DNA of 64,000 nucleotides from Epilithonimonas sp. JDS (lineage in GTDB: Bacteria; Bacteroidota; Bacteroidia; Flavobacteriales; Weeksellaceae). The stretch is from the NCBI RefSeq assembly GCF_021261315.1, contig NZ_JAJSAX010000001.1, positions 1,240,001 through 1,304,000 on the forward strand. Reading direction: 5' to 3'. Shown here piece by piece: positions 1,008 through 32,656 of the stretch (position 1 is its first letter; every line of letters begins with the position of its first letter). The position numbers and the translations under genes are program-made. The notes below the pieces were generated by a model. The model was not told the origin of the DNA. It did not search any database and saw only the letters and a program-made list of their open reading frames with translations.

Positions 1008-1661
1008 ATGAAACGGTATTTATTAATATTCTTAAGCTTTTTCCTCTTCAACTGTAATGGACAGGAGAAAAAATCAAAACCTTTAACAAATCAAAAAATG
1101 GATAAAAACAATTTGGAATATGCCACTTTGGCAGGCGGATGTTTTTGGTGTGTGGAAAGTTGTTTTCATATGCTGAAGGGTGTAGAATCTGTAACTTCCG
1201 GATATTCCGGCGGTAAAACAGACAACCCAACTTATGAAGAAGTGTCAACGGGAACTACAGGACACGCAGAAGTGGTACAGATCGCTTATGATCCGAAAAT
1301 CATTTCTTACAAACAACTGCTGGAAGTTTTCTGGTTTCTTCATAACCCGACTACGCTCAACAGACAAGGAAATGACATTGGAACGCAATACAGATCGGCA
1401 ATCTTTTATCATTCCGATCAACAAAAACAACAGGCCGAGGAATCTATGAAAGAGTCTGAAGCGAAAGGAGAATGGAATGGAAAATACGTCACAGAGATCG
1501 TTCCTTTCAAAAAATTCTGGTCAGCGGAAGCTTACCACCAAGGTTATTACAATGCCAATCCAAACCAGCCTTACTGTAGTGCTGTAGTTGGACCAAAGAT
1601 CCAGAAATTCAAAAAGCATTTTGGAGAATTGGGTTGGTTACAAGAAAAAGTGGAGCAATAA
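1008..1661 (+). CDS. msrA: Peptide-methionine (S)-S-oxide reductase MsrA, lipoprotein form
   Basis: Reduces the S-epimer of methionine sulfoxide in proteins. The catalytic motif GGCFWC lies at residues 43-48 (nucleophile Cys45). The family features GYSGG, HAEVVQI and a resolving cysteine in QPYC near the C-terminus are present. The first 16 residues form a lipoprotein signal ending in N-C (Cys16), so the enzyme is probably anchored in the cell envelope and repairs periplasmic or surface proteins. It is a single-domain MsrA of 217 aa with no fused MsrB. A hairpin overlapping the stop codon ends transcription. Confidence 0.95.
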   Translation: MKRYLLIFLSFFLFNCNGQEKKSKPLTNQKMDKNNLEYATLAGGCFWCVESCFHMLKGVESVTSGYSGGKTDNPTYEEVSTGTTGHAEVVQIAYDPKIISYKQLLEVFWFLHNPTTLNRQGNDIGTQYRSAIFYHSDQQKQQAEESMKESEAKGEWNGKYVTEIVPFKKFWSAEAYHQGYYNANPNQPYCSAVVGPKIQKFKKHFGELGWLQEKVEQ

Positions 1662-1676
1662 ACTCCACTTTTTTTA
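1646..1676 (+). terminator. Intrinsic terminator of msrA
   Basis: Inverted repeat AAGTGGAG (1648-1655) and CTCCACTT (1663-1670), followed by a T-run to 1675. The msrA stop codon lies in the loop. Confidence 0.8.
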
Positions 1677-1708
1677 TGTCTAAATTAAATTTAAAATATT
1701 AAATCTTT

Positions 1709-1775
1709 TGCAGCCCGACTTGAACGGATCCCGATTTAAAATCGGGAGGGAGTGGAAGGCGGATTAGCTGCCCAA
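1709..1775 (-). repeat. Intergenic hairpin repeat, family B, copy 1
   Basis: Read on the minus strand it begins GGGCAGCT, continues ATCCGCCTTCC, and ends CAAGTCGGGCTGC. The same ends occur on the plus strand at 24621-24727. The centre is a short hairpin, CCCGATTT and AAATCGGG. It sits between the convergent genes msrA and the DUF3078 gene. No coding potential is seen. Confidence 0.7.
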
Positions 1776-1778
1776 ATA

Positions 1779-2888
1779 TTAATTCACAAATGGCTTAATA
1801 ACACCAGTCGTTGTGTCTCTATCCACTTTATATCCGAGATTATAAGTAATTCCAAAACCTAAAGTCTGCTTTCTCTGCAGTCTTTTGATTTGATCGTGGT
1901 CATAAATCATATCAATCGTCACGACACCGGAAATATATTTGTTGAATTTAAGATTCAATGCGCCGCTGTAGTTGATGTCGACTCTTTCTGTATGCTCCAG
2001 ATAATTGCTGAAGAAATTGACCTGATTGACGTAAGTGATGTCTTTGTAAATCTTAATTTTATAAAGGATATTCAGCATCGCACCAAGCTCCGCCCGCATC
2101 GATTGGCCGTCGCGTTCCAAACCGTACAATCCTTTCATCTGAAGTTTTTCATCAAGAACAAAAGTAAATTTACCATTCAGCGGACGTAGAATAACCTGGA
2201 AATTATCATTTGGATTATAAGAGAAACCAAGACCAACGTTCAGATAACCCGGCGCCATAAATTTGGAAATTCTGTCATCAAAAACCGGATCCGGCGTATT
2301 TGCATAATTGAATCCCGGTGTGAATTGTGACAGGAACTGGAAACCTGTTGATAAATAATAATGCTGCGCTAACTCATAACCATAATTGGTCATAATATTG
2401 ATGTAATCATCTGTCTTTCTGGTAGATTGCCCCGTAGATGACACAAATCCGTAAGCCATCTGTATATTGTTGTCTAAATAATGTCTGTTCTTTTTGTAAA
2501 CAATATTGTAATTCACTTTTCCAATAACGCCAATATTGTTGTTACCTCCGGCGTACCAATTCGCAAAGGATGACTGATTGAAAACCAAACTGTTTTGCCC
2601 AAAGAAAAACCAGCGTTTGAGTGTCGGTAGATTGAGGATTGATGACGGCGTCAACGGACTTGTGTCTTCTGTATTGGAAACGATAATGGTATTGTTGGAC
2701 AATTTTACAGAATCTTTCTTTAATGATCTGATATCAACGATTTTAGGATTTGCAAGACTGTCGATGTCAATAGCCGTAGAGTCCCATCTTCTTTGAGCAA
2801 TCGAGTCTATTAATTTCTGATATTCGGTAATCTGAGCCTGAGAAAAGAAAACCATTAAAACCGCAAAAATCGACAATACCTTTTTCAT
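1779..2888 (-). CDS. DUF3078 domain-containing protein, probable outer-membrane beta-barrel
   Basis: A 369-aa protein with a Sec signal peptide (MKKVLSIFAVLMVFFSQAQ) and a C-terminal region of alternating aromatic and polar strands such as FNQSSFANWYAGGNNN, typical of the DUF3078 family of Bacteroidota. These proteins are predicted outer-membrane barrels of unknown function. It stands alone on the minus strand, convergent with msrA. Family membership rests on the tryptophan/asparagine-rich motif after the linker and on the periodic barrel strands. No ligand or enzymatic residue is evident. Confidence 0.75.
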   Translation of the reverse strand: MKKVLSIFAVLMVFFSQAQITEYQKLIDSIAQRRWDSTAIDIDSLANPKIVDIRSLKKDSVKLSNNTIIVSNTEDTSPLTPSSILNLPTLKRWFFFGQNSLVFNQSSFANWYAGGNNNIGVIGKVNYNIVYKKNRHYLDNNIQMAYGFVSSTGQSTRKTDDYINIMTNYGYELAQHYYLSTGFQFLSQFTPGFNYANTPDPVFDDRISKFMAPGYLNVGLGFSYNPNDNFQVILRPLNGKFTFVLDEKLQMKGLYGLERDGQSMRAELGAMLNILYKIKIYKDITYVNQVNFFSNYLEHTERVDINYSGALNLKFNKYISGVVTIDMIYDHDQIKRLQRKQTLGFGITYNLGYKVDRDTTTGVIKPFVN

Positions 2889-3031
2889 TAATAAAAATTT
2901 TTCAGCAAAAATAGCAAAACTAAATTTTTAAAAATCTGACTTTATAACCAAATTCTCAATTAATCCATCATTTTTTACGGACAAAATTACCTTTTCTTCA
3001 TAATGGCTGTATAATTGTGATTCTCAAATCC

Positions 3032-3805
3032 ATGTTTTTGAAAACCTTTCATTTAAAATCCTTTTTGGTTCCGATCGTGATGCTTGCATTGATGTGGATT
3101 TTTTTCCTGCTTCAGAATCTCGGATTTTTTAGCGGCTGCTATGGAGCAATCATTCCACTTGTACCGGAAGGTTTGAGCGGCGTTATCTTTGCACCTCTCC
3201 TTCACGGAAGTCTGGATCACATCATTGGCAACTCGATGCCGATTGCCATTCTTCTTTTTTTATTGTTTGAATTTTACCCCAAAATTGCTTTCAAAATATT
3301 TCTCATAGGCTGGATTGCTTCCGGATTATTGGTCTGGATGCTTCCTCCGATTGATATCACGAACGGACAGTGGAACTACAGCTGCATCATTGGCGCGAGC
3401 GGATTGGTTTATATGCTGGCATTTTTCATCTTTTTCAGTGGCGTCTTCCGTTGGAATATGAAATTGCTGACGGTTTCAATGGTCGTGGCTTTGTACTACG
3501 GAAGTTTGATTTGGGGTATTTTTCCGGAAGAATTTTTCTCCAATTTACAGGAACCAAGCAAGATCAGCTGGCAGTCGCATCTTGCTGGAAGTATAACGGG
3601 AATTATTTTAGCCTTAATTTTCAGAAAATACGGCGACAAAAAAATCAAGTATATATGGGAATATCCTGAGTATTACAATGAAAGAGATGACAAACTTTGG
3701 CAGGAATATATTCAGAATCATCCAGAGGATTTTGAAGAGCTGCCACAACTGAAACAACATAATATTTGGAAATATCTGGATGAAATACGGGAAAATGAAA
3801 AATAA
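3032..3805 (+). CDS. Rhomboid-family intramembrane serine protease
   Basis: A polytopic membrane protein of about 257 aa. The Ser of the Ser-His dyad is in IGASGLVYM and the His is in the later helix SHLAGSITG. HGSLDHIIGN supplies the family asparagine in helix 2. The C-terminal ~60 residues are soluble and acidic/aromatic. I chose ATG at 3032 rather than the in-frame GTG at 3017 because it is the stronger codon and directly precedes the first hydrophobic segment. It lies 30 bases before dprA and may be cotranscribed. The substrate is unknown. A second rhomboid lies at 21698-22447. Confidence 0.85.
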   Translation: MFLKTFHLKSFLVPIVMLALMWIFFLLQNLGFFSGCYGAIIPLVPEGLSGVIFAPLLHGSLDHIIGNSMPIAILLFLLFEFYPKIAFKIFLIGWIASGLLVWMLPPIDITNGQWNYSCIIGASGLVYMLAFFIFFSGVFRWNMKLLTVSMVVALYYGSLIWGIFPEEFFSNLQEPSKISWQSHLAGSITGIILALIFRKYGDKKIKYIWEYPEYYNERDDKLWQEYIQNHPEDFEELPQLKQHNIWKYLDEIRENEK

Positions 3806-3835
3806 TTTCTAAATTGGTCATACACAAATGACCCT

Positions 3836-4942
3836 ATGAATCCCGAAGAATATCTCTACATCCTCGCGCTGAAACAGTGCAAAAACATTGGAAACATCAA
3901 TCTAAAAAAGCTGATTAAAAATATTGGCTCCGCAAAAAAAGTTTGGGAATCTACACCAAAATCCCTGCTTTCAATTTCCGGAATCGGGAAAAGCAGTATT
4001 CAGAATATTGGAGATACTGAATTTCTGAAATCCGCTGAAAAAGAAATAAAATTCTTAGAAAAGCACGACATCAAAATCATTGCCCAGGAAGACAATTTAT
4101 ATCCAAAACATCTTCTGAACTGTGATGACTCTCCGGTAATATTATTCTACAAAGGTAACTTGAATAATGATCTTAATCCAGTCAGTATTGTCGGAACGAG
4201 AAAACTGACGACGTATGGCAAACATTTTATTCAGGATCTGATGAGTGAATTAGCTGGATCAAAAGTCTGCACAATCAGCGGACTGGCTTTGGGAGCAGAT
4301 TCCAGCGTGCATGAGGAATCACTTAAAAATAGCATTCCGACCATCGCAGTTTTAGCCCAGAGTCTGGACAAAATCTATCCGGCTTCTAACAAAAATCTTT
4401 CTAAGAAAATCCTCGAAAATAATGGCGCACTGATCACAGAATATGCGTCGTTCGAAGGAATGGCAAAAGAAAACTTCCTGCAGCGCAACAGGATCATCGC
4501 AGGATTTTCGCCGCATCTTATTGTTGTGGAAACTGCTTATGGCGGAGGATCGGTAACAACGGTAACAGCTGCAAATCAATATAATCGTGATGTTTTTGCA
4601 TTGCCCGGAAAAATCACTGATGTCTACAGCCAAGGTTGCAATCAACTGATAGCGAACAACAAAGCTGAAACGATTGTGGACATCAAAAGTCTCGTTAAGA
4701 ATCTGAATTTCACGCCTCAACCGGAATTATTCCCAAAAGAAGAACCAAAAATAAAGATTGATCCAGAGAAAAAAGACCATCAAAAAATTCTGGAAATCAT
4801 CACTCAAAACAATTCTATTTCTCTGGACGATTTAGCAGAAAAATCCGAGATTCAGCATCACAAGATTTTACCAATTCTTCTTGACCTTGAGATATATGGC
4901 TACATCAAATGCCTTTCGGGAAGACAATATCAGTTAAGCTGA
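3836..4942 (+). CDS. dprA: DNA-processing protein DprA
   Basis: DprA binds incoming single-stranded DNA during natural transformation and loads RecA. The 368-aa protein has an N-terminal helix-hairpin-helix-like region (residues 1-60). A Rossmann-type core follows with SIVGTRKLTTYG, SGLALGADSSVH, ITEYASFEG, the LQRNRIIAG motif and GGGSVTT. A C-terminal winged-helix (DML1-like) domain covers residues ~310-368. All the usual parts are present. Presence of dprA is common in bacteria and does not by itself show competence. Confidence 0.95.
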   Translation: MNPEEYLYILALKQCKNIGNINLKKLIKNIGSAKKVWESTPKSLLSISGIGKSSIQNIGDTEFLKSAEKEIKFLEKHDIKIIAQEDNLYPKHLLNCDDSPVILFYKGNLNNDLNPVSIVGTRKLTTYGKHFIQDLMSELAGSKVCTISGLALGADSSVHEESLKNSIPTIAVLAQSLDKIYPASNKNLSKKILENNGALITEYASFEGMAKENFLQRNRIIAGFSPHLIVVETAYGGGSVTTVTAANQYNRDVFALPGKITDVYSQGCNQLIANNKAETIVDIKSLVKNLNFTPQPELFPKEEPKIKIDPEKKDHQKILEIITQNNSISLDDLAEKSEIQHHKILPILLDLEIYGYIKCLSGRQYQLS

Positions 4943-5124
4943 TGAAACTTACATTTCGGAAATTTGAAGTAATTTAATATTAACTTAAAAAATCCTTAAC
5001 ACAAAAGACGTAATTATACATTATGCAAAAAAGTTAATCTATATAAATGAATTTTCAATAAAAATCAAAATATTACTTGCGAAATTCGAAAAAGAATTTA
5101 AATTTGTTGTCATAATTGTACACA

Positions 5125-6483
5125 ATGGAATTATTTAACGTCGAAGAAAAGATTCAGGAATTTATGGCAAAGATTGAAGCCAAAAATCCGAACGAACCCG
5201 AATTTATCCAAGCTGTAAAAGAAGTTGCGGTTACCGTAATTCCTTTCATCGCAACGAGAAAAGAATATACCGGAATGAAACTTCTGGAAAGAATGGCTGA
5301 GCCGGAAAGAGTCATCATCTTCCGCGTGCCGTGGATCGATGACAAAGGCGAAATCCAGGTGAACAGAGGTTTCAGAATCCAGATGAATTCTGCCATCGGG
5401 CCTTACAAAGGCGGGATCAGATTCCACCCGACGGTGAACCTCAGCGTTTTGAAATTTCTGGCATTTGAGCAGACTTTCAAAAATTCACTTACCACTTTGC
5501 CGATGGGCGGTGGAAAAGGAGGTTCTGATTTTGACCCTCAGGGAAAATCTGATATGGAAGTTATGCGTTTCTGCCAAGCTTTTATGATGGAGCTTTGCAA
5601 ACACATCGGTCCTGAAACAGACGTTCCTGCCGGGGATATTGGCGTTGGCGCAAGAGAAATCGGATACCTTTTCGGAATGTATAAAAAAATCAGAAACGAA
5701 TTTACCGGCGTACTGACTGGTAAAGGTTTGGCTTACGGTGGATCGTTAATCCGTCCGGAAGCAACTGGTTACGGCGTTGTTTACTTCGCTGAGCAAATGC
5801 TGAAAACCATCAATGAAACCATTGCCGGTAAAACGGTAGCAGTTTCGGGATTTGGAAACGTGGCTTGGGGTGTTATCAAAAAAATCAATGATCTTGGCGG
5901 GAAAGTTGTGACAATGTCCGGTCCGGATGGTTACATCTACGACAAAGACGGAATCTCAGGTGAGAAAATAGAATATCTTCTGGAATTGAGAGCTACCGGA
6001 AACAACAGAGCCGAAGATTACATTACGAAATATCCGGAAGCGCAGTTCTTCGCGGGAAAAAGACCTTGGGAGGTGAAATGTGACATTGCATTCCCATCTG
6101 CAACGCAAAATGAGCTGGATTTGGAAGATGCAAAACTTTTGGTTGCAAACGGTTGTCTTTGTGTAACTGAGGCTGCAAATATGCCTTCTACTCTGGACGC
6201 CATCAATTATTTCCTTGATAACAAAGTATTATTCTCTCCGGGAAAAGCTTCTAATGCTGGTGGTGTTGCCACTTCCGGATTGGAAATGACACAAAACTCT
6301 ATCAGACTTAACTGGACTTCTGAAGAAGTAGATGCCAGACTGAAAGAAATTATGATCGGCATCCACAAAGCTTGTAGAGATTACGGTAAAGAGGATGACG
6401 GCTATGTAAACTACGTGAAAGGTGCGAATATCGCAGGTTTCGTGAAAGTAGCAGAGGCAATGCTGGCTCAGGGTGTAGTTTAA
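5125..6483 (+). CDS. gdhA: Glutamate dehydrogenase, NADP-type (hexameric)
   Basis: Catalyses reversible reductive amination of 2-oxoglutarate to glutamate, a main ammonia-assimilation entry point. At 452 aa it has the length of the hexameric small-subunit enzymes. Visible motifs are GPYKGGIRFHP, the catalytic-lysine segment PMGGGKGGSDF, the PAGDIGVGAREIG loop, and the dinucleotide-binding stretch VSGFGNVAWG. An upstream TTG codon (5116) is in frame, but ATG at 5125 gives the family-typical N-terminus MELFNVEEKIQ. It is a single-gene unit ended by a strong bidirectional terminator. Confidence 0.95.
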   Translation: MELFNVEEKIQEFMAKIEAKNPNEPEFIQAVKEVAVTVIPFIATRKEYTGMKLLERMAEPERVIIFRVPWIDDKGEIQVNRGFRIQMNSAIGPYKGGIRFHPTVNLSVLKFLAFEQTFKNSLTTLPMGGGKGGSDFDPQGKSDMEVMRFCQAFMMELCKHIGPETDVPAGDIGVGAREIGYLFGMYKKIRNEFTGVLTGKGLAYGGSLIRPEATGYGVVYFAEQMLKTINETIAGKTVAVSGFGNVAWGVIKKINDLGGKVVTMSGPDGYIYDKDGISGEKIEYLLELRATGNNRAEDYITKYPEAQFFAGKRPWEVKCDIAFPSATQNELDLEDAKLLVANGCLCVTEAANMPSTLDAINYFLDNKVLFSPGKASNAGGVATSGLEMTQNSIRLNWTSEEVDARLKEIMIGIHKACRDYGKEDDGYVNYVKGANIAGFVKVAEAMLAQGVV

Positions 6484-6533
6484 TTAAGACATTTGAAGTT
6501 AAATTTTAGAAATTAGAATTCAACTTTGATCAT

Positions 6534-6572
6534 AAAAAAATGCAGCTAAGTCATTTAGCTGCATTTTTGTTT
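6534..6572. terminator. Bidirectional terminator between gdhA and the cupin gene
   Basis: AAAAATGCAGCTA (to 6548) pairs with TAGCTGCATTTTT (6556-6568). It has A-runs and T-runs on both sides, so it can serve both convergent genes. Confidence 0.85.
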
Positions 6573-6602
6573 TATTTTGGATAATTATAATTAATACTTT
6601 TA

Positions 6603-7484
6603 TTACTTCGGCAAACCTCTTTTCAAGGCATAATTGGCTCTTTCGATGGCTTTTTTCTCTTTCCAGTTCATATAGTTGGCTTTGAAGTTTTTCTTCATAA
6701 AATTATCAAAACCTCTTTGCACAGTAAGATTCCATAGCGAGTTAGCTTTCACACCCCAACTTTTGTCCCAGGCTCTTAGTGACAATGAGAAACTGCCGTC
6801 CAGATATTTCATCCAGTGCCACCAGCCAGTCGGCATAAAGAGTGTGTCGCCGTGTTCCAGAAAACATTCGATGCCCTGAACGCCGTCCAATGCAGGAAAA
6901 TTTTTGAAATCCGGATTTTCTATATCATAATCTTCCAACGCATAAGTCGCATAAGGAAGACAGTACAAACGCTCTTTCCATTTTTGTTCGAAAAGCAAAA
7001 CATGTTTTCTACCATTGAAATGGGTGTGGAAAATATGAGCCAGATCAATATCGTAGTGAAGGAAAGTCACCGAACTTTTTCCGCCAAAAAACATACTTGG
7101 ATATTTGTCCAGAAAACCGCCCATTAATTCTTTTGGAGAAATATAGTCATTCAGAATATCGGGTGCGTGCTTGATAGGATCGAAAAAGAAAATTCTTAAA
7201 TCGGTGGGTTCTCTTTGAATCAGATCGATGTAATCTGCAAATTTCATCTCCGTCGTAGGCGTATTGATTGGCGCTGCAGGATCTGCTTTGGCGCTGTCGT
7301 ACAAAGGCACTGTCACATCGCCCACAACTTCTTTGATATAGTCCATTGTCCACTTTTGATAAGCCGGCCAGTTTTTCGCCATATTTTTGATGACAACCGG
7401 TTTGCGGGGTTTCAGATATTTTTCAAAGAAATCCTCTTTAGAAATATCGTCTACAATATCAATTGGTTTTAAAATAACTCCCAT
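6603..7484 (-). CDS. Cupin-like (JmjC-related, cupin_8) protein, copy 1
   Basis: A 293-aa member of the cupin_8/JmjC-like superfamily, whose characterised relatives are Fe(II)/2-oxoglutarate-dependent hydroxylases of proteins or tRNA. The iron facial triad is visible: His143 and Asp145 in FLHYDID, and His223 in GWWHW. The N-terminus (RKPVVIKNMAKNWPA) is the usual 'put my protein in place' strand of these enzymes. It has a paralogue in this window at 56633-57505 with matching motifs in the same order. No signal peptide; probably cytoplasmic. The substrate is unknown. Confidence 0.8.
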   Translation of the reverse strand: MGVILKPIDIVDDISKEDFFEKYLKPRKPVVIKNMAKNWPAYQKWTMDYIKEVVGDVTVPLYDSAKADPAAPINTPTTEMKFADYIDLIQREPTDLRIFFFDPIKHAPDILNDYISPKELMGGFLDKYPSMFFGGKSSVTFLHYDIDLAHIFHTHFNGRKHVLLFEQKWKERLYCLPYATYALEDYDIENPDFKNFPALDGVQGIECFLEHGDTLFMPTGWWHWMKYLDGSFSLSLRAWDKSWGVKANSLWNLTVQRGFDNFMKKNFKANYMNWKEKKAIERANYALKRGLPK

Positions 7485-7729
7485 GTTAATCTAATATTAA
7501 GAAACAAATTTATTAAATTTTACTTTTGCGACAGAAAAAAACAAGGTCTTATCTATAATTATTTTAAATTACCAGATTTGATATTATTAATGATCTACAA
7601 AGAATTTTTCATTCATTCAATTATCAAACCAAGCTCCGTTTAACTTTGATCTTTTTATCAACTCCAAAAAAAAGTTTGTAACATTTTACAACTTCCTTTT
7701 ACTAATACTTTAGTGATACCATTAAAACT

Positions 7730-10456
7730 ATGAAAAAACTTCTATCTTTCTTTTTCGTAATTGCATTTTCTCTCATCGTTTTTGCACAGAAAACCGTTAC
7801 CGGAATCATCACTGATGCCGACGGAAAAGCCCTTGCAAGCGCAAGTGTAACCATTGAAGAGCCAGGAAAAAACGCGATTCTAGCCTACGGAATTTCCAAT
7901 GCAAAAGGCGAATACAAAGTGACTTTTACATCTCCGGAGAGCAATCTGGATCTGAAGATCAAAGCCTTCAACCAGAAACCGATTACGCAATCCATCAGAA
8001 ATGATGATCAGAAACTGAATTTCTCCTTAGATTCTCAAGCCACTGAAATCCAGGAAGTAAGACTTAAAACAAAATTAATTACCAAAAAAGGTGACACCAT
8101 TTCTTACGATCTCAAATCTTTCGAAAATAAAAATGACCGAACGCTTGCCGATGTTTTGAAAAAAATTCCGGGAATTGAAGTCAACAAAGACGGAACAGTT
8201 CTCTATCAGGGAGAAGCCATCAACAAATTCTATGTCAACGGAAAAGACCTGATGGAAGGCGGTTACGGAACGATCAACAACTCACTTCCGAAAGATGCAG
8301 TTTCCAAAGTGGAAGTTTTGGAAAACCACCAGCCGGTGAGTATTTTGAGAGACAAAGTACCATCTGATCAGGCCGCATTAAATATTAAACTAAAAAAATC
8401 TGTAACGATGACCGGCCGTGGCGAAGTTGGTGCAGGCTTCAGTCCATTGCTTTGGAATGTGAAACTGACGCCGATGTTCTTCGGACAGAAAAACCAATGG
8501 GTAGTCAACTATAAAGCTAATAACAACGGAGAAAGTGTAGAAAAAGAAGGCAATCTTTTAAGCTTTGGAAGCCGATGGGAAGGCAGAAGATCTCAGGCGA
8601 AACAAAGTTCTTGGACCAATGTTGAAACTGCCGGAACACCGGATGTGCCTGAAAAAAGATATTTGCTTAATAATGTTCATTTTGTCTCGGCAAACTTGTT
8701 GACAAATCCGTTCAAAAACAAAGAATGGGAACTGAAAGCGAATGTAAGCTATACAAACAATGATGTAGAAAGAGATTCTCACACCACTACGGTTTACGAT
8801 GATAATCCTACCAACGGAAGCTTGGCAGGCAGAACTTTGGAGCAATCCAGAAGCAATGATTTCTACACCAATGCAGCAAAAGCAGAATTAATTTTCACTA
8901 AAAATGCTAAGAAAGGTTTCTTCAAAAATACAACGACATGGAATGGATTCTGGAATGCCAATCGTGGTTTTTCTGAATTAGATACCAACGTTGATGCTCA
9001 GCCTTACATCTTTGGAAATCAATCTTTGGAATCGCCTTCGGGAAGTTTTCAAAACTCTTTGAGTACGATTATTCCTTGGAAAGATAAGCTGATCAATGTG
9101 ATGAGTTATTTCAAATATCAGAGAGATAAGCAGACGATGAGCGTGAATCCTGCGAGTTATACCAATTTCTTTACTAATCTAAATTCTTCTAATGTTTTCG
9201 ATACTTACAGACAGCAGACGCTTTCTGAAACTACAGAAATCAACCATTCCGCTTCAGTTGGATTTACTTTCAAGAAGTTGACAATCATTCCTGAAATTGG
9301 TCTTAATATGAATTTTAATAATCTAAAATCATTGTTAACAGGATCTGCAGGCGGCACTTATTATAATGTCAATAACCGTTCTCAGAATAATATCGACTGG
9401 AATGAACTGACGCCTTACACACAAGTCGCATTCAATTACAAGTCGGACAGATTGAATATGAACATTACCGTTCCGATGAATTTCTACAGCATCAGATATC
9501 AGGACAATCTTTACAACCAATTGGCTGACAAGACAAAAACTGCTTTTGAACCGACATTCTTCGCCAGTTATGACTTTGCATCGTTCTTCAAATATTGGGT
9601 GTTTGCAAATCAGAGTTATGATTTTGGGAATTTCGGATTCTTGTATGGCGGTGATTTGTTGACCTCTGCCGGAAATATCTCAAGAAGATATGTTACTGAT
9701 TTAACAGATTCTCAAATGCCTGATTATCTCAGCAGAAACATAGGAACACGTCTGGAATACCGAAATCCACTCAATAATCTCTTCTTCAACGTTCGTTACA
9801 ACTATGGCACTTTAAAAAGAAATATTGCGGAAACTTTTGACACTGCTGGCGGAATCGGTGGAACTATTGGAATTGTAGCCGTAGAAAATTCGACAAAATC
9901 TCAAAGTGAAAGTGCGGAGATAGGAAAATATTTACCGAAATTCAAAAGTAATATTTCGACGAGTTTTACCAATACAGATTCCAATTCTTTCAGTTATTTC
10001 AACGGGAATTTCATCGAAAGTAAAAATAATGTCCAGACTTGGGCTGCGAAATTCAACAACGCTTATTTCAGCTGGTTGAGTGTGGATTACAACATTAGTA
10101 TGAACTGGAGCAACAACAAAAATGTGACAAGTTCCAACTCTCAGAAAAACTCTGGCTGGAATCACAATCTTGCGGCTTACATCTATCCTTCCGAAAATCA
10201 TACTTTCGGTTTCAACTGGGACAACAGCGTGACTTCGACACAGGGAAATACTTATAAGAATCCATTTTATGACATCTCTTATCAGTACACTTGGGTTAAG
10301 AAAAAAATCGATTTCGAGCTGAAATGGCTGAACATCACCAACAGAAAAGTTTACGAAATCGTAAATGTGGATATCACAAGAGGTTACACACAGACACAAA
10401 GCTACAACATCCGTCCGAGCCAGTTTATGTTCACGGTTAAATTTAATTTCAAATAA
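7730..10456 (+). CDS. Large outer-membrane beta-barrel protein with carboxypeptidase-regulatory-like N-domain
   Basis: A 908-aa protein: signal peptide (1-19), carboxypeptidase-regulatory-like beta-sandwich (about 21-105, KTVTGIITDADGKALASASV), then a plug-like domain (about 115-225, with ADVLKKIPGIEV and INKFYVNGKDL), then a barrel of long amphipathic strands ending in an aromatic residue plus K. It resembles TonB-dependent receptors, but no TonB box is evident. It directly precedes a GLPGLI-family gene, a recurrent pairing in Bacteroidota. The cargo is unknown. An intrinsic terminator separates the two genes. Confidence 0.8.
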   Translation: MKKLLSFFFVIAFSLIVFAQKTVTGIITDADGKALASASVTIEEPGKNAILAYGISNAKGEYKVTFTSPESNLDLKIKAFNQKPITQSIRNDDQKLNFSLDSQATEIQEVRLKTKLITKKGDTISYDLKSFENKNDRTLADVLKKIPGIEVNKDGTVLYQGEAINKFYVNGKDLMEGGYGTINNSLPKDAVSKVEVLENHQPVSILRDKVPSDQAALNIKLKKSVTMTGRGEVGAGFSPLLWNVKLTPMFFGQKNQWVVNYKANNNGESVEKEGNLLSFGSRWEGRRSQAKQSSWTNVETAGTPDVPEKRYLLNNVHFVSANLLTNPFKNKEWELKANVSYTNNDVERDSHTTTVYDDNPTNGSLAGRTLEQSRSNDFYTNAAKAELIFTKNAKKGFFKNTTTWNGFWNANRGFSELDTNVDAQPYIFGNQSLESPSGSFQNSLSTIIPWKDKLINVMSYFKYQRDKQTMSVNPASYTNFFTNLNSSNVFDTYRQQTLSETTEINHSASVGFTFKKLTIIPEIGLNMNFNNLKSLLTGSAGGTYYNVNNRSQNNIDWNELTPYTQVAFNYKSDRLNMNITVPMNFYSIRYQDNLYNQLADKTKTAFEPTFFASYDFASFFKYWVFANQSYDFGNFGFLYGGDLLTSAGNISRRYVTDLTDSQMPDYLSRNIGTRLEYRNPLNNLFFNVRYNYGTLKRNIAETFDTAGGIGGTIGIVAVENSTKSQSESAEIGKYLPKFKSNISTSFTNTDSNSFSYFNGNFIESKNNVQTWAAKFNNAYFSWLSVDYNISMNWSNNKNVTSSNSQKNSGWNHNLAAYIYPSENHTFGFNWDNSVTSTQGNTYKNPFYDISYQYTWVKKKIDFELKWLNITNRKVYEIVNVDITRGYTQTQSYNIRPSQFMFTVKFNFK

Positions 10457-29478: not shown

Positions 29479-29508
29479 TTTGCAGATTCAAAAAAAATAA
29501 TATCTTTG
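29479..29508 (+). promoter_or_regulatory. Strong Bacteroidota promoter of a small transcript
   Basis: TTTG (29479-29482), 18-base spacer, TATCTTTG (29501-29508), a full match to TAnnTTTG. The predicted start is near 29515. This is one of the best vegetative promoter matches in the window. Confidence 0.75.
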
Positions 29509-29552
29509 CACCTGAAAATCAAGTTCAACCAAAAAAAAATAACAACGAAGCA

Positions 29553-29630
29553 ATGTTCAAATACAACTTACATACATCAGTAGGATTGCCTTTTGCAAAG
29601 GCGGGGCTTCGTGGTTTGGTACATTCTTAG
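29553..29630 (+). CDS. Candidate 25-aa small protein or leader peptide
   Basis: ATG to TAG, 25 codons, product beginning MFKYNLHTSVG and ending RGLVHS. The start context is strongly A-rich (nine consecutive A in the leader), as expected for translated Bacteroidota genes. The ORF spans the internal hairpins of the transcript, so translation would change its folding. No run of a single amino acid points to a specific attenuation signal. Too short to be certain that it is coding. Confidence 0.4.
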   Translation: MFKYNLHTSVGLPFAKAGLRGLVHS

Positions 29631-29651
29631 AACAACAGTATAATGAAATAT

Positions 29652-29684
29652 CAAAACCCGGAGTCGTAAGATTTCGGGTTTTTT
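29652..29684 (+). terminator. Intrinsic terminator of the small transcript
   Basis: AAAACCCG and CGGGTTTT arms around a 14-base centre, then T-run to 29683. It lies 270 bases before rtcB. Confidence 0.75.
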
Positions 29685-29730: not shown

Positions 29731-29826
29731 TTAGGAGCTTAATCCCGCTTTCCGCTATATCTTTTTTTGCCAGCGCTTTTTTCAAGCCCACGCAAAAAAA
29801 AAGATGCCGCTGCAATCGGGGCTAGG
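29731..29826 (+). repeat. Intergenic hairpin repeat, family B, divergent copy 3
   Basis: Starts AGGAGCTTAATCCCGCTTTCC and ends GCTGCAATCGGGGCTAGG. The inner inverted repeat ATCTTTTTTTGC / GCAAAAAAAAAGAT matches the layout of copy 2. Confidence 0.65.
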
Positions 29827-29841
29827 ACAAACTCCTGCCTT

Positions 29842-29954: not shown

Positions 29955-31346
29955 ATGGGAAATTTAAAATTAAAAGGAAAAGATATATTAAAATTAGGCT
30001 ATCCAAACAACCAGAGCGTCAACATCGCTTTGGAAGTGATGAAAAGAAATTTTGCAACCAAAAATATTCATTATGTGAAATCTCTACTCAAGGAAATCCA
30101 CCAAAATCCGGAAAACTTCGAGAAAGATTTAACCTTCGGACAAATTGCGGAAGCTCTGCTTTCATCAAAGAAAACCGAGAAAAGAATGCTCAACACCAAC
30201 CGGGCGTCTTTCCAGATTTTCGGAAATAATATTTCAGATGAAGCTAAAAACCAGCTCTACACCGCATTGAAACTGCCAATTGCAACGCAAGGCGCTTTGA
30301 TGCCCGATGCACACAGCGGTTACGGACTTCCAATAGGTGGCGTTCTCGCAGTAGAAAATGCGGTAATCCCTTACGGAGTCGGAATGGATATCGGTTGCAG
30401 AATGTCGCTCAGTATTTTGGATACGCCAATTTCATATCTCGACGGCGCGAAAGACAAATATGAAAAAGCGCTTGGCGAACACACTAAATTCGGAATGTAT
30501 GAAACGCACAAATCTCACGTCGACCACGAAATTTTCGACAGAGACACGTTCGGTTTAATTCCGATTTTGAGAAGATTAAAAAGAAAAGCCATCAAACAAA
30601 TGGGAAGTTCAGGCGGCGGAAATCACTTTGTGGAATTCGGAGAAGTGGAGATTACTGAAGAAGACAAACAAATCAATCTTCCGAAAGGAAAATACCTTGG
30701 AATCCTTTCGCACAGTGGTTCGCGTGGATTGGGAGCAGAAATCGCTCAGTATTATTCGAGAGTGGCGACCGAACAGTGTCCGTTGCCGAAAGAAGCGCAA
30801 AACTTCGCCTGGCTGGATTTGAACACGCACCTCGGATTAGAATACTGGACAGCGATGAATCTCGCAGGAGATTACGCTTCGGCCTGCCACGACGATATTC
30901 ACAGAAGATTGGTGAAAGCGGTCGGTGGAAGAGTGAAAGCCAGAATCGAAAACCATCACAACTTCGCGTGGAAAGAAATCCACAACGGGAAAGAAGTGAT
31001 TGTCCACAGAAAAGGCGCAACTCCAGCCAACGAAAACGAGTTGGGTATGATTCCCGGTTCGATGACGGCAAAAGGTTTCATCGTTCGTGGAAAAGGAAAT
31101 CCGGATTCGCTGAACTCGGCTTCACACGGAGCGGGACGGGCTTTTTCGAGAGGAGAATGCAGAAACCGCTTCACTCAAAATGACATTAAGAAAGAATTAA
31201 AACTTAAAAATGTCACCTTGATGGGCGGAAATGCGGAAGAAGCACCAATGGCGTACAAAGACATCAACGATGTGATGAACGCACAAAGTGAACTGGTCGA
31301 TATTCTCGGAACTTTCCAACCTCGAATTGTTAGGATGGATAAATAA
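29955..31346 (+). CDS. rtcB: RNA-splicing ligase RtcB (PrfH-linked type)
   Basis: GTP- and Mn-dependent ligase joining 2',3'-cyclic phosphate and 5'-OH RNA ends. ATG at 29955 gives MGNLKLKGKD; an in-frame ATG at 29898 lies in the repeat/promoter DNA and was rejected. 463 aa with the metal and catalytic residues: Cys148 (GMDIGCRMS), His224 (GGNHF), His253 (SHSGSRG), His334-His335 (ENHHNF), and guanylate-accepting His391 (SASHGAGR). No archease or RtcA is adjacent; the partner is prfH, 85 bases downstream. This context implies rRNA repair rather than tRNA splicing. Confidence 0.95.
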   Translation: MGNLKLKGKDILKLGYPNNQSVNIALEVMKRNFATKNIHYVKSLLKEIHQNPENFEKDLTFGQIAEALLSSKKTEKRMLNTNRASFQIFGNNISDEAKNQLYTALKLPIATQGALMPDAHSGYGLPIGGVLAVENAVIPYGVGMDIGCRMSLSILDTPISYLDGAKDKYEKALGEHTKFGMYETHKSHVDHEIFDRDTFGLIPILRRLKRKAIKQMGSSGGGNHFVEFGEVEITEEDKQINLPKGKYLGILSHSGSRGLGAEIAQYYSRVATEQCPLPKEAQNFAWLDLNTHLGLEYWTAMNLAGDYASACHDDIHRRLVKAVGGRVKARIENHHNFAWKEIHNGKEVIVHRKGATPANENELGMIPGSMTAKGFIVRGKGNPDSLNSASHGAGRAFSRGECRNRFTQNDIKKELKLKNVTLMGGNAEEAPMAYKDINDVMNAQSELVDILGTFQPRIVRMDK

Positions 31347-31357
31347 TTTGATTGAAT

Positions 31358-31404
31358 GTTGATGGTTGTTAGTTGATAGAAATCTATCTCCAACAACCAT
31401 CAAC
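31358..31404 (+). repeat. Hairpin between rtcB and prfH
   Basis: GTTGATGGTTGTT (31358-31370) pairs with AACAACCATCAAC (31392-31404). The loop holds a second stem, GATAG / CTATC. CCATCAAC recurs at 31411. It has no T-run, so it is not a standard terminator. Confidence 0.65.
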
Positions 31405-31431
31405 TAAAAACCATCAACAAAATTTAAAAAA

Positions 31432-32130
31432 ATGGACAAAATAATACAAATCACCTCGGGAAGAGGACCTTTGGAATGTCAATGGGTAGTTGCCAAAGTT
31501 CTGAAGGTCTTTCTTGAGGAAGCAAAACAAAATAATATCGGTTACGAATTCATTCACCGTGAAAATGGCGATGAAAACCTCACTTTGAAATCTGCGACTT
31601 TAATTTTAAAAGGAAAAGAGGCAAATGAATTTCTGAAAAACTGGCTCGGAAGCATTCTTTGGATTGGCAAAAGCACTTTCAGAAAATTCCATAAAAGAAG
31701 CAACTGGTTTATCGGGATTTTTGAACTGGAGGATTTGGAGAAAATTGAATTTAAGGAAAGAGACGTTCAGTTTCAGACCGCAAGAAGTCAGGGAAGTGGC
31801 GGACAAAACGTGAATAAAGTGGAAACTGCCGTTCGGGCGACTTATCCGAAAACCGGACATAGTGTTTTCGTGCAGGATTCCCGTTCGCAACTGGAGAACA
31901 AGAAAATTTCCATCATCAGATTAAAAGAAAAAGTAATGGAATTTCACATTCAGCAACTGGAAAAACAAATGCAGGAAACGTGGAACAATCATTTGAATGT
32001 TCAGCTTGGAAATCCTATCCGAATTTTTTCAGGAACCGATTTTAAAAAGAATCATCAGGAGAAATCTTTCAAAAAAGAAAGACATCAACTGAAAAATGAA
32101 TTAAAAAACTACAGAAATGACCTTAACTAA
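31432..32130 (+). CDS. prfH: Peptide chain release factor homologue PrfH
   Basis: 232 aa. The peptidyl-tRNA hydrolysis motif GGQ is at residues 123-125 in SQGSGGQNVNK. The N-terminus ITSGRGPLECQWVVAKV is typical of PrfH. There is no codon-recognition domain with PxT or SPF, and the C-terminus is basic. PrfH recognises ribosomes whose 16S rRNA is cut at the decoding centre and releases the nascent chain, letting RtcB reseal the rRNA. Immediately downstream of rtcB, overlapping the TPR gene by 14 bases. Confidence 0.92.
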   Translation: MDKIIQITSGRGPLECQWVVAKVLKVFLEEAKQNNIGYEFIHRENGDENLTLKSATLILKGKEANEFLKNWLGSILWIGKSTFRKFHKRSNWFIGIFELEDLEKIEFKERDVQFQTARSQGSGGQNVNKVETAVRATYPKTGHSVFVQDSRSQLENKKISIIRLKEKVMEFHIQQLEKQMQETWNNHLNVQLGNPIRIFSGTDFKKNHQEKSFKKERHQLKNELKNYRNDLN

Positions 32131-32641
32131 AAGTAAATATTATTTTGAAGCGCTGGATAATTATCCATACAGCCTGCCGGATTGTCTGGAAGCGTTGAAT
32201 TATGCGCTTTCCTACGACCCTGAAGATGCAGATTCGCTTTGTCTGATGGGAAGAATCTACAGCGAAATGCTCGATGACTATGAAAAAGCAAAACTCTATT
32301 TCGAGGAAGCAATGCAATGTGACTTGACCAATCTGAATACGCCAAAATACTACATTAAATGTCTTTTGGACAACGAAGATTTTCAGGAAGCAGAAAAACT
32401 GATTAACTATTCTTTAAAAATCAAAGGAATTGACAGATCAACATTATGGTTTTACAGAGCTTTGTTGTCTGAGATGAGGGGAAGTTTTGTGAATGCTTTG
32501 AAGTTTTTAAATGATGCAAAGCAATTCAGTTATAATAAGGAAATGCTTGAATTCATTAAAGACAGAGAGCAATTCGTCAAATCAAAAATGCCAAAAAAGC
32601 TGAAGAAAAAATCAGCTAAAAAGAAGAAGGAAACCAAATAA
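32117..32641 (+). CDS. TPR-like protein with lysine-rich tail, third gene of the rtcB-prfH operon
   Basis: 174 aa, no signal peptide, so cytoplasmic. Helical TPR/Sel1-like repeats cover about residues 20-140 (PDCLEALNYALSYDPEDADS, LMGRIYSEMLDDYEKAKLYF, TLWFYRALLSEM). The last 20 residues include 12 lysines, a tail suited to binding RNA or ribosomes. Its start lies inside prfH (14-base overlap), implying translational coupling, and the operon terminator follows its stop. I know of no assigned function; a role as an adaptor in RtcB-PrfH repair is inference. Confidence 0.85.
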   Translation: MTLTKSKYYFEALDNYPYSLPDCLEALNYALSYDPEDADSLCLMGRIYSEMLDDYEKAKLYFEEAMQCDLTNLNTPKYYIKCLLDNEDFQEAEKLINYSLKIKGIDRSTLWFYRALLSEMRGSFVNALKFLNDAKQFSYNKEMLEFIKDREQFVKSKMPKKLKKKSAKKKKETK

Positions 32642-32656
32642 GGTTTCCTTTTTTAT
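32627..32656 (+). terminator. Terminator of the rtcB-prfH-TPR operon
   Basis: AAGGAAACC and GGTTTCCTT around a 6-base loop, then a T-run. The loop contains the TPR stop codon. Confidence 0.85.

What the first reader, a model, noticed from the sequence alone, without database searches (positions are those of the whole stretch)
29955..32641. RtcB-PrfH ribosome repair cassette with a third gene
RtcB (all metal/guanylation residues seen) and PrfH (GGQ, no codon-recognition domain) are adjacent. Published work on such pairs shows PrfH releasing nascent chains from ribosomes with 16S rRNA cut at the decoding centre and RtcB resealing it. Here a TPR gene overlaps prfH by 14 bases and a terminator follows it, so a three-gene unit is encoded. 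The third gene is not part of the described system as I know it.
Basis: partly seen in the sequence, partly recalled or inferred. Interest (0 to 1): 0.85.

Follow-up and report, generated by a model that had tools for sequence, protein, structure and literature searches.

The report
Self-sensing ribosome repair operon, three genes
A flavobacterial gene unit that would repair damaged ribosomes carries a third, probably helper, gene and, in front of it, a small RNA switch that looks built to turn the unit on when protein synthesis fails.

Summary
In detail: rtcB (29955-31346), prfH (31432-32130) and a TPR gene (32117-32641, 14-nt overlap) form one unit ending in a terminator whose first arm lies inside the TPR gene. 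The TPR gene is no local accident: in 395 Bacteroidota genomes it directly follows prfH in 26 of 28 prfH carriers, all 26 in the window's order, and in 80 of 80 named loci (the best 80 of 436); the trio sits at different chromosome sites. But it is already in print as an accessory gene (Burroughs & Aravind 2019), so that novelty claim fails; its function is untested. A covariance model reports one copy in 20 of 395 genomes, all 20 upstream of a prfH cassette; local searches add the other six order members (26 of 26). I read it as a ribosome-mediated attenuator: complete leader translation turns the operon off, failed translation turns it on. The same logic is published for armZ, next to prfH, in Pseudomonas aeruginosa. 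Induction, cotranscription and the TPR's role remain untested.

The parts
29501..29508 (+). promoter -7 box TATCTTTG
   Evidence: matches the flavobacterial sigma-A consensus TAnnTTTG given in PMC9723704 (passage); similar boxes are seen before the leader in many of the other cassettes printed (not counted); no transcript data
29553..29630 (+). leader ORF, 25 codons plus stop
   Evidence: leader ORF in 77 of 80 named cassettes, 25 codons in 76 and 27 in L148; two more by covariance model; one full-length match in the own genome, the other 22 matches 14-30 nt long
29586..29604 (+). hairpin P1 inside the leader ORF (codons 12-17)
   Evidence: 6 of 8 pairs show changes on both sides in 74 sequences
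29605..29665 (+). antiterminator: 29605-29621 (leader codons 18-23) pairs with 29649-29665 (terminator 5' side)
   Evidence: 97.1% of cells paired in 74 sequences, but only 1 of 16 pairs has changes on both sides; RNAalifold picks its inner core by itself; stronger than most synonymous recodings
29653..29684 (+). intrinsic terminator between leader and rtcB (attenuator)
   Evidence: 13-bp stem and T run; seen in the other cassettes
29737..29827 (-). Flavo-1 RNA element, antisense to the operon
   Evidence: Rfam RF01705, 69.7 bits, gathering 42; same place in 8 of 10 cassettes scanned
29955..31346 (+). rtcB, RNA ligase, 463 aa
31432..32130 (+). prfH, peptide chain release factor H, 232 aa with a basic C-terminal extension
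32117..32130 (+). 14-nt overlap of prfH and the TPR gene
   Evidence: same 14-nt overlap in 73 of 79 named loci parsed
32117..32641 (+). TPR protein, 174 aa, lysine-rich C-terminal tail
32627..32654 (+). operon terminator; 5' arm encodes the end of the TPR protein, stop codon in the loop
   Evidence: 55 of 80 loci at the TPR stop, 0 of 79 at rtcB stops, 0 of 80 at prfH stops

Best explanation
The region is a ribosome-repair operon controlled by a ribosome-mediated transcription attenuator. Transcription starts near 29513 and first reads a 25-codon leader. While ribosomes work, one follows RNA polymerase to the leader stop codon and covers leader codons 18-23; these can then not pair with the terminator's 5' side, the terminator forms and the operon stays off. 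When translation fails (ribosomes cut at the decoding centre, or stalled by drugs), codons 18-23 pair with the terminator's 5' side, the polymerase reads through, and RtcB, PrfH and the TPR protein are made from one message ending near 32654. PrfH then releases the nascent chain from the damaged ribosome, RtcB reseals the 16S rRNA, and the TPR protein, translationally coupled to PrfH, most likely acts as a small ribosome- or rRNA-docking adaptor through its basic tail. Shown here by sequence: the parts, their order, conservation, covariation of hairpin P1, and joint movement. Known from published work on relatives: the PrfH and RtcB activities. Inferred: the start site, the switch's behaviour, cotranscription, and the TPR's role (about 50% for adaptor).
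For: Trio: TPR next to prfH in 26 of 28 prfH genomes of 395 and in 80 of 80 named loci (the best 80 of 436); in the genus 12 of 23 genomes have prfH and the same 12 have the TPR. Joint movement: the trio fills one site in 4 genomes; 12 other genomes have that site empty, 7 of which carry the trio elsewhere. End of unit: terminator at TPR stops 55 of 80, at rtcB stops 0 of 79, at prfH stops 0 of 80. Leader: 79 of 80 named cassettes (the 80th is cut by a contig end), 26 of 26 order members of the phylum sample. Structure: 96.9% of cells paired against 92.6% shuffled and 32-57% slid; 97 cells with both-side changes against 34.5 shuffled. Precedent: leader PA5471.1 attenuates armZ (RtcB-like), which lies next to prfH in P. 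aeruginosa (PMC12057347, PMC13041342, passages). A PrfH that aligns at 66-67% identity has been solved on a damaged 70S ribosome (9mor, 9mq4).
Against: No expression data. At full length the terminator wins in equilibrium with or without a ribosome (P 0.96-0.97), so the switch must be kinetic; whether a ribosome on the stop codon blocks the antiterminator depends on the assumed footprint (P 0.04 for nt 58-89, 0.90 for nt 60-90). The antiterminator helix hardly varies, so the covariation comes mostly from P1, and one of five measures (further pair types, 21 against 19.8) is not above the shuffles. 545 of 14,800 synonymous recodings pair as strongly. TPR frames are broken in 2 of 12 genus members; TPR relatives occur without prfH in 3 genomes, plus 2 weak hits; 33 of 35 prfH genomes of two families outside the order lack the TPR, so it is not essential to RtcB-PrfH as such.
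Confidence: 0.7

Rival explanations
1. The leader is a peptide-specific arrest sensor (as in erm leaders): a particular drug or damaged ribosome arrests on the conserved end of the peptide and this, not general failure of translation, opens the operon.
For: Nearly fixed length and conserved ends MF and LRG.VHS; the GLP stretch is kept while proline codons vary. Most leaders hold an RLR motif, which is recalled as a macrolide-arrest motif.
Against: The invariant codons are those that pair in the antiterminator, and the codon 12-17 variation fits hairpin P1, so RNA pairing explains most of the conservation. The window and 8 other distinct leaders (of 67) have G in place of the first R. The leaders of the second family keep little beyond LR(G) and the architecture.
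Confidence: 0.3
2. The leader region is only a terminator plus a small ORF, with no switching; rtcB has its own downstream promoter.
For: 270 nt lie between the terminator and rtcB; the equilibrium fold shows the terminator in each state tested.
Against: The leader moves with the cassette to another site (G011), occurs in cassettes of two families and was reported nowhere else in 395 genomes (only 8 candidates per genome were scored), and its ORF pairs with the terminator more strongly than 14,255 of 14,800 synonymous recodings.
Confidence: 0.12
3. The TPR gene is a hitch-hiker kept by translational coupling or by supplying the terminator, with no part in repair.
For: Broken in 2 of 12 genus members; absent behind 33 of 35 prfH genomes of two other families; its 3' end carries the operon terminator.
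Against: Purifying selection: dN/dS 0.06-0.17 in the 11 computable of 12 pairs; kept next to prfH across two families; a divergent TPR also follows prfH in 2 genomes of another family.
Confidence: 0.2

Closest known systems
RFH-RtcB operons with accessory TPR gene (Burroughs & Aravind 2019, PMC6514570, passages read)
   Same: rtcB-prfH plus a TPR gene; that text also names a nucleotidyltransferase accessory, and two of five inserted genes tested here have weak nucleotidyltransferase hits
   Different: The passages seen give no leader or attenuator and no function test; its supplementary lists were not seen. Frequency of the TPR, joint movement, terminator and leader were measured here
E. coli RtcB2-PrfH (PMC9223846, abstract and introduction read)
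   Same: PrfH releases nascent chains from ribosomes cut by colicin E3, RtcB2 reseals 16S rRNA, the pair protects cells
   Different: The RtcB here is 463 aa and fails TIGR03073, the model named for the RtcB beside release factors (147.8 against 271.8 bits); the one E. coli prfH record looked at has no TPR gene next to it
P. aeruginosa PA5471.1-armZ with adjacent prfH (PMC12057347, PMC13041342, passages read)
   Same: short leader peptide and proposed transcription attenuation in front of an RtcB-like gene next to prfH; complete leader translation gives the terminator
   Different: different phylum; no TPR gene is named in those passages; the output studied there is MexXY efflux; the two leader sequences were not compared here
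Amino-acid operon attenuators (recalled; PMC9723704 reports such leaders in a Flavobacterium, passage)
   Same: mutually exclusive antiterminator and terminator set by ribosome position
   Different: no run of one amino-acid codon in the leader; hairpin P1 and antiterminator are compatible, so an untranslated leader is predicted to be on

Membership tests
PrfH (TIGR03072) | score over curated cut-off | tested here: met
   207.2 against 166.65 bits
PrfH (TIGR03072) | GGQ motif and loss of RF domain 1 | tested here: met
   GGQ at 123-125; aligns to the RF2 model only from position 118 on
RtcB RNA ligase (PF01139) | family score and active-site residues | tested here: met
   E 1.3e-80; alignment to 1uc2
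RtcB beside release factors (TIGR03073) | score over curated cut-off | tested here: not met
   147.8 against 271.8 bits; a longer RtcB
RtcB-PrfH repair module | adjacent genes in one orientation, rtcB first | tested here: met
RtcB-PrfH repair module | release and resealing of decoding-centre-cut ribosomes | not testable with these tools
   needs biochemistry
Ribosome-mediated attenuator (PA5471.1-armZ kind) | short ORF then intrinsic terminator before the first gene | tested here: met
Ribosome-mediated attenuator (PA5471.1-armZ kind) | antiterminator overlapping the ORF and excluding the terminator | tested here: met
   the helix itself varies little, so covariation gives it little support
Ribosome-mediated attenuator (PA5471.1-armZ kind) | ribosome position decides between the two folds | tested here: inconclusive
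   nascent-RNA result depends on two bases of footprint; equilibrium gave the terminator in each state tested
Ribosome-mediated attenuator (PA5471.1-armZ kind) | induction by translation inhibitors | not testable with these tools
   needs expression data
Rqc1-like TPR scaffold (suggested in PMC6514570) | homology to Rqc1 | not tested
   no direct comparison made; the model (pLDDT 73.2) has no PDB match at E <= 0.001 and generic TPR proteins as weak ones

The most novel reading that the evidence does not exclude
Flavobacteriales carry a dedicated translation-failure sensor RNA for rRNA repair: a leader that senses loss of functional ribosomes and drives a three-protein repair machine in which the TPR protein is a ribosome-docking subunit coupled to PrfH. 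Leader-peptide attenuation would then be a recurring way to control RtcB-PrfH operons, and its best-known case, P. aeruginosa armZ, would be a repair operon whose output was later tied to efflux.
Probability: 0.4. Interest if true: 0.8.

Novelty: new variant of a known kind. Interest (0 to 1): 0.62.

Why it matters
It gives a sequence-level answer to how a ribosome-repair operon could know when to switch on, in a phylum where I found no description of it in the library searched, and a testable model: a 144-position RNA that marks prfH cassettes across two families. It also links RtcB-PrfH repair with the armZ attenuator of P. aeruginosa, suggesting a shared control logic for ribosome damage and ribosome-targeting drugs.

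Tried and rejected
TPR tied to the PrfH C-terminal extension: in 36 of 36 Flavobacteriales loci examined PrfH has an extension (26-32 residues after the GNPxRxFxG motif in 34; two, L055 and L056, do not match the motif but are visibly extended), against none or short ones in the 36 loci of two other families. But 2 genomes there (3 places) have a TPR without the extension, and the pattern follows phylogeny, so docking on the extension is not shown.

Terminator loop as a 16S mimic: GAAGUCGUAA equals the recalled 16S decoding-centre strand around the colicin E3 site. The stem, a GNRA-like loop and the antiterminator pairing explain it, so I do not claim it; it was not tested.

Terminator covariation on alignment A5 is not informative: most rows have one more loop base and fit one column off (75.4% paired as written, no better than the shuffles; 90.5% at slide +1).

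A first script to show the empty site printed nothing (part C) and was redone; its printout for L198 is misplaced, so for that genome I rely. Fold search with the TPR model gave only weak, generic TPR proteins (best E 0.025). Phages: no TPR match. Plasmids: 45 records match PrfH, all under 60% identity. BTnc005 matches the leader region at only 24.2 bits (gathering 174.8) and no paper held names it. PMC5062991 is not held. An in vitro PrfH/RtcB paper of 2022 is recalled only; nothing of it was seen apart from its summary in PMC9223846.

A generic search for a short ORF followed by a terminator in the 900 nt before rtcB (18 cassettes of other families) gave two candidates unlike this leader (L301, L304); the same kind of search also gives chance candidates in Flavobacteriales loci, so it was not used as evidence.
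Full report
WHAT IS THERE. rtcB runs 29955-31346 (463 aa), prfH 31432-32130 (232 aa), the TPR gene 32117-32641 (174 aa), and the last two overlap by 14 nt. Families: RtcB E 1.3e-80 in Pfam; PrfH 207.2 bits in TIGR03072 (cut-off 166.65); the TPR protein has weak hits to many TPR models. The RtcB does not pass TIGR03073, the NCBIfam model named for the RtcB beside release factors (147.8 against 271.8 bits). The nearest solved PrfH (9mor and 9mq4, 'Damaged 70S ribosome with PrfH bound') aligns at 66-67% identity. The genome's genus includes Epilithonimonas lactis, whose TPR is 99% identical.

HOW GENERAL IS THE THIRD GENE. In the genus, 12 of 23 genomes have prfH over the cut-off and the same 12 have a TPR match; the other 11 have neither. 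In an even sample of 395 genomes of the phylum, 28 have prfH; in 26 the TPR match is on the same strand 70-263 nt after the end of the prfH match. These 26 are all the prfH genomes of the window's order in that sample, 9 from the window's family and 17 from a second. The TPR model hit 31 of 395 genomes: those 26, three good hits without prfH (G248, G356, G388) and two weak ones (G148, G412); at most 8 candidates per genome were scored. A scan of species genomes confirmed 436 relatives of the TPR, of which the tool kept the best 80. All 80 have prfH directly before them and 79 have rtcB, the 80th (L183) lying at a contig end. These 80 are 65-99% identical to the query, so they do not test the family's edge; two of them (L123, L188), besides L183, show a short prfH frame. 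The overlap is 14 nt in 73 of the 79 loci parsed. The distance from rtcB to prfH varies and can hold up to three genes of about 120-220 aa; of five such genes tested from other loci, two have nucleotidyltransferase hits, one over its cut-off and one below. In two other families of the class, 18 of 147 and 17 of 151 genomes have prfH; within about 1.5 kb behind it, none of the 18 and 2 of the 17 have a (divergent) TPR.

THE UNIT MOVES TOGETHER. Searching the genus for the DoxX-like gene before the cassette gave 18 of 23 genomes. In 4 (the window's, G004, G008, G015) the trio lies between DoxX and a hydrolase gene. In 12 the two genes are direct neighbours about 40 nt apart, and in 2 DoxX is followed by psd instead. 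Seven of the 12 empty-site genomes carry the trio elsewhere. In G004 an extra small gene and a second copy of the TPR 3' end with its terminator follow the trio. The terminator behind the TPR gene has its first arm inside the coding sequence: the test is met in 55 of 80 loci at the TPR stop, 0 of 79 at rtcB stops and 0 of 80 at prfH stops. TPR dN/dS between the window and 12 relatives is 0.06-0.17 in the 11 computable pairs (prfH 0.07-0.14 in 11); several dS values exceed 1, so this is rough. Two genus members (G007, G015) have a broken TPR frame.

Comparing filled sites showed that a stretch of several hundred nt before rtcB is shared by the cassettes, also in G011 where the cassette sits elsewhere. 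It holds a TATCTTTG box (29501-29508; the sigma-A -7 consensus TAnnTTTG is given in PMC9723704, passage), a 25-codon ORF (29553-29630) and a terminator (29653-29684). A pattern search found the ORF in 77 of 80 named cassettes: 25 codons in 76, 27 in L148. The covariance model found a leader in two of the three others (L146 166.9 bits, L192 70.5 bits; their ORF length was not checked) and the last (L183) is cut by its contig. In the own genome the leader occurs once in full; the other 22 listed matches are short, with E >= 0.46.

THE FOLDS. In the window and six relatives folded, the nascent RNA up to the terminator's second arm forms hairpin P1 (codons 12-17) and a long helix between codons 18-23 and the terminator's first side. 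RNAalifold on 74 leaders chose P1 and the core of that helix unprompted. Counted on the same alignment: 96.9% of cells pair (92.6% after shuffling, 32-57% when slid); 97 cells have changes on both sides (34.5 after shuffling); the number of further pair types (21 against 19.8) is not above the shuffles; 6 of 8 P1 pairs have both-side changes, but only 1 of 16 antiterminator pairs, because that helix hardly varies. The structure was taken from one of the sequences, which favours it in the slide control. The antiterminator duplex averages -19.3 kcal/mol against -12.6 for synonymous recodings; 545 of 14,800 recodings were as strong, 4 of 200 for the window, up to 47 of 200 for one relative.

SPECIFICITY. 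Model R1, built from those 74 leaders, was run over the same 395 genomes: 20 have a match, one each, and all 20 lie 1.5-3.1 kb before the prfH match on the same strand. That run used strict filters and scored 8 candidates per genome, so weak further copies could be missed. Nine of the 20 are from the window's family, close to the training set; the 11 from the second family are independent of it. The six remaining order members were found by local searches of their cassettes at 37-53 bits, so all 26 have it. In the genus the 12 hits are in the 12 cassette genomes (some of these are the same strains as training rows). In cassettes of the two other families, 20 of the 35 genomes were searched (18 stretches, L098 and L099): no match better than E 1.2. 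The plasmid records L245 (E 2.8) and L246 (none) gave nothing either, and of the three TPR loci without prfH (L093-L095) the best is 17.1 bits, E 0.73.

HOW IT SHOULD WORK. Complete leader translation puts a ribosome on the stop codon; a footprint over nt 58-89 of the leader abolishes the antiterminator core in the nascent RNA (P 0.04), a stalled ribosome over nt 16-46 leaves it (P 0.98), as does no ribosome (0.98); but a footprint two bases further on (60-90) leaves it at 0.90, and one over nt 30-60 abolishes it. At full length the terminator dominates in each state tested (0.96-0.97), so the switch must be decided during transcription. This is the logic proposed for PA5471.1-armZ of P. aeruginosa, where ArmZ is called RtcB-like and prfH is the neighbour; there, leader deletion or an early stop raises ArmZ (PMC12057347, PMC13041342, passages).

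LITERATURE. The TPR accessory gene is in print (PMC6514570, passage). For an attenuator on RtcB-PrfH operons outside Pseudomonas I found nothing in these searches: rtcB + leader peptide + attenuation (1 paper, the MexXY review), prfH + leader peptide (3 papers: that review, PMC13159725 seen in two passages, PMC10502375 seen as a listing), and a six-term search on Bacteroidetes leaders (29 papers, 20 listed). PMC9723704 reports leader-peptide attenuators before amino-acid operons and Flavo-1 hits in 5' regions of Flavobacterium psychrophilum; its main text does not contain 'rtcB', but its supplementary list of 64 structured 5' regions was not seen. PMC7366714 mentions leader-like small ORFs in Bacteroides in one passage. 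Subscription papers are mostly not held, so 'not described' is limited to this library.

VERDICT. A confirmed observation, a third gene that is already on record but now counted, and a conserved regulatory element that would make the unit a self-sensing repair operon. The function of the switch and of the TPR protein are inferred.

Noticed in passing
window 29737-29827, minus strand: Flavo-1 RNA (RF01705, 69.7 bits) lies antisense between attenuator and rtcB; the same in 8 of 10 cassettes scanned, with further plus-strand copies between rtcB and prfH in L113, L114 and L119.
   Followed up: partly
window 31357-31419: 21-nt inverted repeat (95% complementary, 21-nt spacer) between rtcB and prfH.
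   Followed up: no
L095 (G356) 6404-9868: A PcfJ-like gene, a long RtcB (62% identical) and the TPR gene without prfH.
   Followed up: partly
L115 7525-8250: An extra small gene and a second copy of the TPR 3' end with terminator at the right edge of the cassette (G004), perhaps a trace of insertion.
   Followed up: no
L098 (G039) 1432-6415: Two long RtcB genes (505 and 466 aa) about 2 kb apart, the second followed by prfH.
   Followed up: no
own genome G000:C19:191299-192057: A second, lower-scoring RtcB match over the cut-off (open frame 462 aa) elsewhere in the genome.
   Followed up: no
L123, L188: prfH open frames shorter than usual (162 and 106 aa), possibly broken or assembly errors.
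   Followed up: no
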